DNA from: Armatimonadota bacterium
GTDB lineage: Bacteria; Armatimonadota; HRBIN16
Direction of reading: 5' to 3'
Length of the DNA stretch: 64,000 nt
Assembly (NCBI GenBank): GCA_026003175.1
Contig: BPGT01000002.1
Span: 868,001 to 932,000 of the forward strand
Positions 28,261 through 35,314 of the stretch are shown piece by piece. Both the position numbers and the translations under genes were made by a program. The notes under the pieces were generated by a model that was not told the origin of the DNA, did no database searches, and saw only the letters and a list, made by a program, of their open reading frames with translations. Every line of letters begins with the position of its first letter. Within the stretch, counting starts at the first letter, position 1.

Positions 28261-29760
28261 TCATCGTCTCACCGTCTGCACCACACGTACCACGCCTTTC
28301 GCCGCCTGTTGTGCCTGATCCCACCCGAGCGGATATAGCCCGAAGAGCAGGCTGCCGATCATACACAACGCTATCGCCAGCTGCAGACCGAAACCGGGCT
28401 GGGGCAATGCGGGCAGTTCCGCAGGATGGAAATACATCACCACAATCAGCCGCAGGTAGTAGAACGCGGAGATAACGCTGTTCACTGCCAGCACAATCGC
28501 CAGCAGTAACCCCAGCGCGCCCTGTTGGAGCGCGGCGTTGAACAGGAAGAACTTGCCCAGGAAGCCCGCCGTTGCGGGGATGCCAGCCAACGACAGCATA
28601 AACACCGTCATCATCGCCGCCGCGTGTGGACTGCGTGTACCCAGCCCAGCGAGTTCCTCTATCAGATTGCTCTCCCTGCCCTCATGCGCCATCAACGACG
28701 CCACCGCGAACGCTCCCATCGTCATCAGCGCGTAGGCGATGAAATAGTATAACACGGCACTGATGCCTGCCTGTGCTGACGCGAGGTTGCTAATAGCCAC
28801 CACGCCTACCAGCAGATAGCCCGCATGGGCGATGCTTGAGTACGCCAGCATTCGCTTTAGGTTCGTCTGCGCCAGCGCGAGCAGGTTGCCTACGCTCATT
28901 GTCAGGATAGCCAGCACTGCTAACACCGTCACCCACAACGTGCTTGCAGGTTGGAACGCTATCGCCACCCGAATGAACGCGGCGAACGCCGCCGTCTTCG
29001 CTGCGGAAGCCATGAATGCTGCAGCTGCGGTTGGCGCGCCCTCATACACGTCGGGCGTCCAAACGTGGAACGGAACCAGAGCCGCTTTGAAACCCAGTCC
29101 CACCAGCAACAGCGCCAAACCGCCATATAACAGCAACCGCTGCTCCGGCGAGGGTGAGAAGAGTGCAGGCATCAGCTCGTTCAAGTTCGTCGTGCCCGAT
29201 GCACCGTAAATCAGTGCGATACCGTAAAGCAAGAAACCCGACGCGAACGCTCCCAGCAGGAAGTATTTCAACGCCGCCTCCTCAGAGCGCGTCTCGGTGC
29301 GAGCCAGCCCTGCCATCACGTACATCGACAGCGAAAGTATCTCCAACCCGATGAACAGTACCATCAGGTTCTGCGCTGCCGCCATGACCATCCCGCCCGC
29401 TGTGGAAAACAGCACCAGTGCGAAGTACTCAGGGAAAGCGATGCGCTTCTCTCGCAGATACGGTTCCGCCATCAGCACCGCGAGTGACGCAATACCCAGC
29501 AATATCAGGCGTACCACCTGCGCGAACTGGTCGCTGAGAACGGTAGATGCGAAAGCCTGTCGCGACTGCCCCCAGAAGGCAACCGCAAACCCAGCACTGA
29601 TCGCAGTGCCAATCAGGCTCAGCACCACCAGCGGCGTGTACGACCGGTATCGCAGCGATAAGCCCAGTAGCAAAACAACCGTTGCTGCCAGCGTTAATAC
29701 CAGTTCGGGCGCAATCGCCGCGAACCAGATATCCGATGGCAATGGCGGATAACCCGTCAT
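28261..29760 (-). CDS. nuoN: NADH-quinone oxidoreductase subunit N
   Basis: This antiporter-like membrane subunit of complex I has 499 residues and about 14 helices. Segments typical of NuoN include LNELMPALF, PFHVWTPDVYEGAPTAAAAFMASAAKTAAFAAFIR, with the conserved TM7-8 Lys, and LKRMLAYSSIAHAGYLLVG. It is the last gene of the nuo operon, and its ATG at 29760 comes two bases after the stop of a UROD-family gene, with GGGAGGAG upstream. Normally nuoN follows nuoM directly. Confidence 0.94.
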   Translation of the reverse strand: MTGYPPLPSDIWFAAIAPELVLTLAATVVLLLGLSLRYRSYTPLVVLSLIGTAISAGFAVAFWGQSRQAFASTVLSDQFAQVVRLILLGIASLAVLMAEPYLREKRIAFPEYFALVLFSTAGGMVMAAAQNLMVLFIGLEILSLSMYVMAGLARTETRSEEAALKYFLLGAFASGFLLYGIALIYGASGTTNLNELMPALFSPSPEQRLLLYGGLALLLVGLGFKAALVPFHVWTPDVYEGAPTAAAAFMASAAKTAAFAAFIRVAIAFQPASTLWVTVLAVLAILTMSVGNLLALAQTNLKRMLAYSSIAHAGYLLVGVVAISNLASAQAGISAVLYYFIAYALMTMGAFAVASLMAHEGRESNLIEELAGLGTRSPHAAAMMTVFMLSLAGIPATAGFLGKFFLFNAALQQGALGLLLAIVLAVNSVISAFYYLRLIVVMYFHPAELPALPQPGFGLQLAIALCMIGSLLFGLYPLGWDQAQQAAKGVVRVVQTVRR

Positions 29761-29762
29761 AT

Positions 29763-30698
29763 TCACGCTCCTCCCACTTCCAGAACGGCTTCCCGAATCG
29801 CCAATAGCAGCTCCGGTGGCGTGTCGGTTGGCACGGCGCACCCCGGCGCAACAATAACGCCCCTGCCGCGCGTCTGCTCGATGGTTTCACGCACCTGCTG
29901 CTTGACCTGCTCTACCGTCAGGCTTTTGATATTCACCTCGTCCACACCCGCCATGATGCAACCGGTGTACTTCAACCGCGCTTCGGGGATAGACGGAGCG
30001 GTGATACGGTTGCTCCACGAAAGCACGTGCGCCTTAGCGGTCAGCGGAAGCAGAAGATCAAAGTAGATGTTCTCGCCATGAATGTGCAGCACGTTGACCG
30101 GCGCTCCCTGTGCGGCGTCCAGCACCATTTCATCCAGCGGCAGAAAATATCGCTCGTACTCCTCCGGCGTCGCCAGGTCAGCGCTCGCGCCAGATACCGC
30201 CAGATACGTGCCGATGCCCTCTTCCGCCAGCTTCCTCGCATAGCCAGCCAGCGATTGCGCGATGCGCTCCAATCCCAGTCGCACCGCGTCCGGGTTTTGA
30301 CGCAGGTGGTTCAGCAGTTGCTGCTGCGAAATCTTCTGTGCGTAGGCAAACACGTTGAACACCGTGTCCACCATCGGTGCGTCGTCACCTTTGCGTCGCT
30401 GGATGATGCGCAGAGCCGCCAGCTGCTCACCAAAGTTGCCCTTATCAGGCGCCAGCACCGGCAGCTTTGCCCAATCCTCTATGGAATGAACGGAGGCCAT
30501 ACCCCGGGGCATCTCATACGGGATGTCGTGCATTACCTTGAGCAGGTCGGGGTCGTATTTAGCGTAGAACTCCAGTTCCGCGTTCGCCAGCGTCTCACCA
30601 GCCGGCGGATTCAGCCGGAAGTGATACCACAGGCTGTACGGCACACGGTCTACCGATTCGCCCCGTATCGCTGCCTGAATGCGTTCGAACTTGGTCAT
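29763..30698 (-). CDS. Uroporphyrinogen decarboxylase (UROD) superfamily protein
   Basis: The 311-residue protein has a UROD-type TIM barrel: VDRVPYSLWYHF, YDPDLLKVMHD, VLHIHGENIYFDLLLPL, HVLSWSNR and IVAPGCAVPTDTPPELLLA. It lacks the substrate-Arg motif (RPVWxMRQAGRY) of HemE, so haem synthesis is unlikely. It resembles the methyltransferase-like branch (MtbA/CmuA relatives), in which His and Cys bind zinc; HIHGE and APGCAVP fit that. ATG at 30698 has AAGGAGGG seven bases upstream. It sits inside the complex I operon between nuoM and nuoN, an unusual place, preceded by a short palindromic repeat (30730-30750). Substrate unknown. Confidence 0.85.
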   Translation of the reverse strand: MTKFERIQAAIRGESVDRVPYSLWYHFRLNPPAGETLANAELEFYAKYDPDLLKVMHDIPYEMPRGMASVHSIEDWAKLPVLAPDKGNFGEQLAALRIIQRRKGDDAPMVDTVFNVFAYAQKISQQQLLNHLRQNPDAVRLGLERIAQSLAGYARKLAEEGIGTYLAVSGASADLATPEEYERYFLPLDEMVLDAAQGAPVNVLHIHGENIYFDLLLPLTAKAHVLSWSNRITAPSIPEARLKYTGCIMAGVDEVNIKSLTVEQVKQQVRETIEQTRGRGVIVAPGCAVPTDTPPELLLAIREAVLEVGGA

Positions 30699-30757
30699 CT
30701 GTTCGCCCTCCTTGTATAACCTCTCCCCCATCCTCTCTCCTACCTGAGAGGGTAGGG

Positions 30758-34398: not shown

Positions 34399-34719
34399 CT
34401 AAAATTTCAGCAGGTTCATCTCGTCCACGTTGATAGTATCGCGCAATCGGTAGATAGCGACAATAATGCCTAATCCAATGGCCACCTCCGCCGCAGCCAC
34501 CGCCATCACCAGAATAGCGTATACCTGCCCGGCAGCCTGCGCTCCCAGCTGCGCCTGTTGCCGCGCGAAGGCAAGGAACGCCAGATTTGCCGCGTTTAGC
34601 ATCAGCTCGATGCACATGAATATCACGATGGGATTACGCTTGATGATCACGCCCGTTACGCCCATCGCGAACATGAACGCACTGAGAATAAGATACCAGC
34701 TTATCGGCACAGCATCCAT
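34399..34719 (-). CDS. nuoK: NADH-quinone oxidoreductase subunit K
   Basis: This 106-residue three-helix subunit has the conserved membrane Glu pair region [23 protein letters not shown]. It is normal in length. ATG at 34719 has GGAGG eight bases upstream, lying within the end of the preceding 28-codon gene. Together with NuoJ it forms the membrane link between the antiporter subunits and the Q-module. Confidence 0.95.
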
Positions 34720-34721
34720 CC

Positions 34722-34808
34722 CTACAGCCTCCGAGTTACCCTGAAAATAAAACCCAGAGCCACTGCTACCACAAAGATAACCAGCAGTTCCTTCCAGCCG
34801 ATTACCAT
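34722..34808 (-). CDS. 28-residue single-helix micro-protein between nuoJ and nuoK
   Basis: This open frame has no family name known to me. The product is [12 protein letters not shown], then a helix through [10 protein letters not shown], ending RVTRRL: one amphipathic-to-hydrophobic helix with a basic C-terminus, reminiscent of the start of TatA. It fits exactly: two bases separate the nuoJ stop from its ATG and two bases separate its stop from the nuoK ATG. A ribosome site (GGAG, nine bases upstream) lies in the end of nuoJ, just as nuoK's lies in its own end. Such tight packing argues that it is translated. It may be a small accessory subunit of complex I or an assembly factor; that is inference. 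Confidence 0.7.
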
Positions 34809-34810
34809 GG

Positions 34811-35305
34811 CTACAGTCTCCGTTTCGCCATCACAATCGCGCCGACGATGGCAATCAGCAACAGTATCGACGTCAACTCGAACGGATACACCCAGTCGGT
34901 GAACAGGAATTTGCCCACCATCTGCACCGTGCCGAGGTCGTCTGCAGCGGGTTGCGCCTTTCCCAAACGGACAAACACGCCTCCCGCCAGCACGATCACG
35001 AACAGCAACGCCAACCCCCACGTGACAGGACGCTTGATCTCACCGCGCTCCGACAACTCTGATGGTGAACCGAGATTCAGCAGCATGATGGTAAACAGGA
35101 ACAGCACCATAATCGCGCCTGCATACACGATAATCTGCACTGCCGCCACGAACTGCGCGTACAGAAACAGATACAGCACCGCCAGCGCGAAGAAGTTCGC
35201 CACCAGGTTTAACGCACTGCGCACCGGATTGCGCACCGCCACCACCCCGATGGATGTAACCACTATCACCAGCGCCATGATGGCAAACAGTATCTGTCCG
35301 AACAT
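34811..35305 (-). CDS. nuoJ: NADH-quinone oxidoreductase subunit J
   Basis: The 164-residue membrane subunit has five helices. [59 protein letters not shown] is the family core, including the TM3 pi-bulge region. nuoJ normally follows nuoI, but here it follows nuoH by nine bases and nuoI is missing. Its stop is two bases before the micro-gene. Confidence 0.95.
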
Positions 35306-35314
35306 TTTCCCCCC

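What the first reader, a model, noticed from the sequence alone, without database searches (positions are those of the whole stretch)
34722..34808. A 28-codon gene for a single-helix peptide fitted between nuoJ and nuoK
The frame encodes a helix with a basic end. It is spaced two bases from both neighbours, with ribosome sites lying in the end of each preceding gene. Such packing in a tight operon is unlikely by chance and would be missed by most gene callers. It may be a new small subunit or assembly factor of complex I.
Basis: partly seen in the sequence, partly recalled or inferred. Interest (0 to 1): 0.68.

Follow-up and report, generated by a model that had tools for sequence, protein, structure and literature searches.

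The report
Tiny membrane-peptide gene inside complex I operon
Between two genes for the respiratory enzyme complex I, some species of one bacterial genus carry a real 28-codon gene for a single-helix membrane peptide, kept by natural selection but missing from close relatives, so it is probably an optional helper subunit rather than an essential part.

Summary
On the minus strand at 34808-34722 lies ATG...[31 protein letters not shown], two bases after nuoJ and two before nuoK, with GGAG-type ribosome sites in both preceding gene ends. It is a real gene by comparative evidence. Four of seven informative congeners (Armatimonadota) have the same 28-codon ORF at the same junction, 64-75% identical to it, with start (ATG/GTG) and stop (TAG/TAA) codons exchanged but kept. 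Pairwise dN/dS is 0.11-0.52. A neutral simulation at the ORF's own divergence reproduced frame and protein conservation in 0.17% of runs; at the neighbours' synonymous rate, in none of 20,000. Three congeners lack it, one of them sister to a carrier, with a scar that fits deletion between short repeats, and it is not elsewhere in their genomes. No homologue was found in 291 genomes of the phylum, Pfam, NCBIfam or PDB. Best explanation: a young, dispensable single-helix accessory peptide of complex I (N-out, basic C-terminus in), working like CydX, KdpF or NdhP. Association with complex I is inferred from operon position only. An unexpected lead: the helix resembles the TatA/TatB membrane anchor more than shuffles do, without the hinge or amphipathic helix. 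New lineage-specific member of a known kind.

The parts
34722..34808 (-). 28-codon ORF, single-helix membrane peptide [28 protein letters not shown]
34811..35305 (-). nuoJ (164 aa, PF00499); its last codons carry the GGAG ribosome site for the ORF
34399..34719 (-). nuoK (106 aa, PF00420), starts 2 nt after the ORF
34811..34822 (-). first copy of the 12-nt near-repeat cggagRctgtag at the nuoJ 3' end (ribosome site for the ORF, possible deletion end point)
34722..34733 (-). second copy of the near-repeat, CGGAGGCTGTAG, at the ORF 3' end (ribosome site for nuoK)

Best explanation
It is a true protein-coding gene for a 28-residue single-pass membrane peptide, translated from the nuo mRNA between NuoJ and NuoK. 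By the positive-inside rule its short N-terminus faces out and its R-x-x-R-R end faces the cytoplasm. It most likely packs against the NuoH/J/K part of the membrane arm as an optional accessory helix, helping assembly or filling a lipid-facing groove, in the way CydX, KdpF, NdhP or the subunit IIa helix serve their complexes. It arose (or entered) near the base of this Armatimonadota genus and has been lost at least twice, once with a scar that fits deletion between the short repeats at the ends of nuoJ and of the ORF. Shown: sequence, position, protein-level selection, presence/absence. Inferred: translation, topology, binding to complex I, helper role, number of gains and losses, repeat-mediated deletion.
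For: The ORF is intact at the same junction in window, G003, G009, G004 and G002, spaced 0-2 nt on both sides. All 28 codons align without indels and 14 columns are invariant. Pairwise dN/dS is 0.11-0.52, and variable sites by codon position 1/2/3 are 10/7/18. Its dN (0.07-0.23) is below the synonymous divergence of nuoJ/nuoK in the same pairs (dS 0.25-1.43). In a neutral simulation, frame kept in all five plus observed identity occurred in 0.0017 of runs at its own divergence and 0 of 20,000 at the neighbour rate. Column-reassignment null: 0 of 2000. No promoter-like match between the genes and ribosome sites in the preceding gene ends, so co-transcription with nuo is likely. Small single-helix peptides encoded with respiratory complexes and bound to them are an established kind (NdhP: PMC4131877; subunit IIa: PMC3128077; TorE/NapE: PMC6134056; CydX: PMC4325964, PMC6005532).
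Against: Three congeners (G001, G005, G007) have nuoJ running 2 nt to nuoK with no ORF there and none elsewhere in the genome, so complex I presumably works without it. No residue of NuoH/J/K separates carriers from non-carriers; the few such columns in NuoL/M are not convincing. No similarity to any known complex I accessory subunit was detected by sequence. Nothing here shows that the peptide is made or binds complex I. Only five sequences exist, so the selection test rests on a small sample.
Confidence: 0.55

Rival explanations
1. The peptide is real but its partner is not complex I. Its helix works like the TatA/TatB membrane anchor (N-out, short helix, acidic residue near the start), so it could touch TatC or the Tat translocase, or it is a decayed tatA fragment parked in the nuo operon.
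For: Residues 3-16 match NCBIfam tatB in all five members (best E 0.007) and Pfam TatA_B_E (0.12), both below the curated cut-offs. Topology-preserving shuffles score as well as the ORF against the genome's own TatA in 0.1% of trials, and none of 1000 against two other TatA proteins (those two were picked because the profile hit them). Profile searches of the phylum hit TatA proteins more often than their share of genes would predict (L127, L180, G051).
Against: The F-G hinge and the amphipathic helix that define TatA/B are absent. The genome already has two full TatA/B genes, as do nearly all congeners whether or not they carry the ORF. E-values are individually not significant, and hydrophobic helices invite convergence. 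The position in the nuo operon is unexplained.
Confidence: 0.15
2. The ORF is mainly a translation-coupling spacer: ribosomes moving through it re-initiate on nuoK, and the peptide itself is a by-product.
For: Its last codons hold the GGAGG site for nuoK, and spacing to both neighbours is 0-2 nt in all carriers.
Against: In non-carriers the nuoJ end itself holds the site and nuoK follows directly, so a spacer is not needed. The amino-acid sequence is under selection.
Confidence: 0.12
3. A free membrane peptide with a separate role (stress peptide or toxin-like small membrane protein) that rides on the nuo promoter.
For: Patchy presence within one genus; size and hydrophobicity are in the range of such peptides.
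Against: No antitoxin or regulator at the site; always co-directional and closely packed with nuoJ/nuoK in five species.
Confidence: 0.1
4. Chance ORF in a spacer.
For: Only 28 codons; absent in three congeners.
Against: Neutral simulations and dN/dS; exact fit between the neighbours in five species, while most long nuoJ-nuoK gaps in other lineages hold no fitting ORF.
Confidence: 0.05

Closest known systems
NdhP / NdhQ of cyanobacterial NDH-1L (PMC4131877, PMC7021789)
   Same: Under 5 kDa, single transmembrane helix, accessory peptides of a complex I relative; NdhP is needed for stable assembly
   Different: They sit at the distal NdhD1/F1 module; no sequence match to the ORF was found in PDB chains
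CydX (cytochrome bd), KdpF (Kdp ATPase), subunit IIa of ba3 oxidase (PMC4325964, PMC3128077; KdpF from general knowledge)
   Same: Very short one-helix proteins encoded next to the genes of the membrane complex they join, often missed by annotation
   Different: Other complexes; no sequence similarity seen in the family scans
TorE/NapE small membrane proteins (PMC6134056)
   Same: Operon-encoded small membrane helpers that improve the efficiency of a respiratory system
   Different: They bind c-type cytochromes of alternative respiratory systems; no sequence match
NDUFA1 (MWFE), mitochondrial complex I
   Same: One helix near ND1/ND6 with W-x-E at the N-terminus
   Different: 70 aa with an outer domain; alignment no better than shuffles (p 0.10-0.35)
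TatA/TatB membrane anchor
   Same: N-terminal [IV]-G-W-[KR]-E-L-L-V-[IV] helix, probable N-out topology
   Different: No F-G hinge, no amphipathic helix; below family cut-offs

Membership tests
Protein-coding gene (versus chance ORF) | Frame kept in relatives with protein-level constraint | tested here: met
Complex I accessory subunit | Encoded with complex I genes | tested here: met
   between nuoJ and nuoK in five species
Complex I accessory subunit | Physically bound to purified complex I | not testable with these tools
   no proteomics or structure available
Complex I accessory subunit | Sequence match to a known accessory subunit (NDUFA1, or others in PDB, Pfam or NCBIfam) | tested here: not met
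TatA/TatB/TatE family (PF02416, TIGR01410) | Score above the curated cut-off | tested here: not met
   12.1 bits against 21 (Pfam), 16.2 against 56.5 (tatB)
TatA/TatB/TatE family (PF02416, TIGR01410) | N-terminal membrane helix followed by F-G hinge and amphipathic helix | tested here: not met
   helix resembles; hinge and amphipathic helix absent in all five sequences
CydX/KdpF-type small operon-encoded subunits (by manner of working) | Under 50 aa, single helix, within the operon of the partner complex | tested here: met
CydX/KdpF-type small operon-encoded subunits (by manner of working) | Deletion impairs the partner complex | not testable with these tools
   needs genetics; three natural nulls exist

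The most novel reading that the evidence does not exclude
Some species of one Armatimonadota genus have added a peptide-sized membrane subunit to bacterial complex I, seated by NuoJ/NuoK and recruited from (or converged on) a TatA-type membrane anchor, while sister species discarded it: a natural present/absent pair for testing what single-helix accessory subunits do.
Probability: 0.12. Interest if true: 0.6.

Novelty: new member of a known kind. Interest (0 to 1): 0.42.

Why it matters
Bacterial complex I is usually described as a minimal 14-subunit enzyme with few accessory subunits known (three in Paracoccus plus a methyltransferase, one in Mycobacterium: PMC11522691; Nqo16 in Thermus: PMC8762328). 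A selected, operon-embedded single-helix peptide with natural nulls among congeners would show how accessory membrane helices start: lineage-specific, optional, easily gained and lost. It also shows that genes under 30 codons inside tightly packed respiratory operons can be found by comparing junctions between species.

Tried and rejected
Partial duplication of the nuoJ tail: the ORF aligns to NuoJ no better than shuffles (p 0.59); only the last 12 nt are shared, which also form the ribosome site. Homology to NDUFA1 because of W-x-E: not significant. A longer 99-aa version starting at GTG 35021: not conserved. N-terminal extension of nuoK or C-terminal extension of nuoJ: in the window the ORF is out of frame with both, and the spacing changes between species. 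Wider distribution: profile searches of 61 and 291 phylum genomes gave only the five carriers and weak chance-level hits. An apparent start in G008 (L137, MVIGWRE then stop) is unrelated sequence. Coupled residues in NuoH/J/K between carriers and non-carriers: none. The wobble signal alone does not fix the coding strand (one reverse frame has the same ratio); the start, stop and ribosome sites do.

Full report
Observation. The finding gives no strand; the ORF is on the minus strand. Reverse-complement translation of 34722-34808 is [28 protein letters not shown]. The ORF upstream is nuoJ (34811-35305, PF00499) and the one downstream nuoK (34399-34719, PF00420). The surrounding ORFs are nuoC, D, E, F, G, H upstream and nuoL, M, N downstream. 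Spacers are 2 nt on both sides, and GGAG/GGAGG sites lie in the last codons of nuoJ and of the ORF.

Is it more than chance? A search of relatives with NuoJ covered nine congeners, seven of them with this nuoJ-nuoK junction. Four (G003, G009, G004, G002) carry an ORF of exactly 28 codons, 0-2 nt from both neighbours; three (G001, G005, G007) have nuoJ running 2 nt to nuoK. The peptides are 64-75% identical to the window's, with 14 of 28 columns invariant, W5, E7, L8, L9, F20, R23, R26 and R27 among them. Start codons alternate ATG/GTG and stop codons TAG/TAA. Pairwise dN/dS is 0.11-0.52, against neighbour synonymous divergences of 0.25-1.43. Starting from the observed ORFs and evolving without selection, all five frames stayed open with at least the observed protein identity in 0.17% of runs at the ORF's own divergence and in 0 of 20,000 at the neighbour rate (the branch lengths were set by hand from the nuoJ/nuoK dS values). 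The other forward frames have pN/pS above 1; one reverse frame shows the same wobble pattern, so the start, stop and ribosome sites are what fix the strand. I conclude it is a protein-coding gene under purifying selection, weaker than on nuoJ or nuoK.

History. On nuoHJKLM trees the non-carrier G007 is sister to the carrier G002 (support 94 protein, 100 DNA); the genus root is poorly resolved. Other Armatimonadota families and distant phyla lack the ORF at this junction, and profile searches of up to 291 phylum genomes found only the five carriers. One gain and at least two losses is the simplest reading that does not require the same peptide to arise or arrive twice. The nuoJ end and the ORF end share cggagRctgtag. 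In G007 the junction reads gcgaagcggaggctgtagGCATGGA, which is what joining the nuoJ end of a G002-like ancestor (gcgaagcggagg) to its ORF end (CGGAGGCTGTAGGCATGGA) through the shared CGGAGG would give. This fits deletion between short direct repeats. Outgroup nuoJ genes also end in similar codons, so the scar is suggestive, not proof.

What it is. One very hydrophobic stretch (residues 8-22, GRAVY 3.3-3.6 in all five) followed by R-x-x-R-R. By the positive-inside rule (general knowledge) the C-terminus is cytoplasmic. The R-R pair is encoded by CGG AGG, the ribosome site for nuoK, so this part of the 'basic end' is partly imposed by translation; R23, outside the ribosome site, is also invariant. 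No family in Pfam or NCBIfam reaches its cut-off and no PDB chain matches credibly.

TatA/TatB lead. All five sequences weakly match TatB/TatA over residues 3-16 (best E 0.007). Against the genome's own TatA (MYFGWQEALPIIVIIVVLFGARRLPEL...) only 0.1% of shuffles that keep helix and flanks score as high; against two TatA proteins chosen because the profile hit them, none do. In profile searches of the phylum at loose thresholds, several of the off-target hits are TatA proteins (L127, L180, G051). The hinge and amphipathic helix that define the family are missing, so it is not a TatA member. Shared ancestry of the helix or convergence on an N-out anchor are both open.

How it most likely works. 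Operon position, size, topology and mild but real selection fit an accessory helix of complex I. Known precedents are NdhP, needed for stable NDH-1L (PMC4131877); subunit IIa of ba3 oxidase, missed in annotation (PMC3128077); CydX (PMC4325964, PMC6005532); TorE/NapE (PMC6134056); and single-helix accessory subunits of mitochondrial complex I that wedge beside ND1/ND6 or hold lipids (PMC8762328). Since three congeners do without it, the role must be conditional or compensable. I put 0.55 on 'complex I accessory peptide', 0.15 on a Tat-related or other-partner role suggested by the helix, 0.12 on a coupling spacer, 0.10 on a free peptide and 0.05 on chance.

Comparison with what is known. Known bacterial accessory subunits are few (PMC11522691, PMC12361115, PMC8762328), and none found here is an operon-embedded peptide of this size at nuoJ-nuoK; my paper searches were limited to open-licence papers. 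The junction is not always empty elsewhere: one Armatimonadota genome of another family (G046) has an unrelated 67-aa ORF with two hydrophobic stretches filling the same gap, not found in 84 relatives apart from one weak partial hit.

Noticed in passing
window 29763-30731 (-): A 322-aa uroporphyrinogen-decarboxylase-like ORF (PF01208, E 4e-24) sits between nuoM and nuoN, overlapping the longest form of the nuoN ORF (28261-29841).
   Followed up: no
window 35306-35314: nuoH is followed directly by nuoJ: nuoI is missing from this place. A NuoI homologue above the family cut-off lies elsewhere in the genome (G000:C3:378827-379213), and another just below the cut-off sits with the second nuoJ-nuoK copy (C1, 759-760 kb).
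   Followed up: partly
L002 (G000:C1, about 759 kb): A second, divergent nuoJ-nuoK pair (about 32% and 42% identity) with no ORF between the two genes.
   Followed up: partly
L114 9908-10732 (G003): In congener G003 the nuoK-nuoL gap is about 820 nt and holds a GIY-YIG-like ORF (by eye) with arrays of short repeated sequence, an insertion absent from the other species.
   Followed up: no
L097 / L183 (G046:C25:41066-41266): An unrelated 67-aa ORF with two hydrophobic stretches exactly fills the nuoJ-nuoK gap in one genome of another Armatimonadota family; among 84 relatives only one weak partial hit.
   Followed up: partly
L009, L031, L046, L062, L066: Candidatus Poribacteria have nuoJ-nuoK gaps of 39-229 nt with repeat-like sequence and no fitting ORF.
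   Followed up: no
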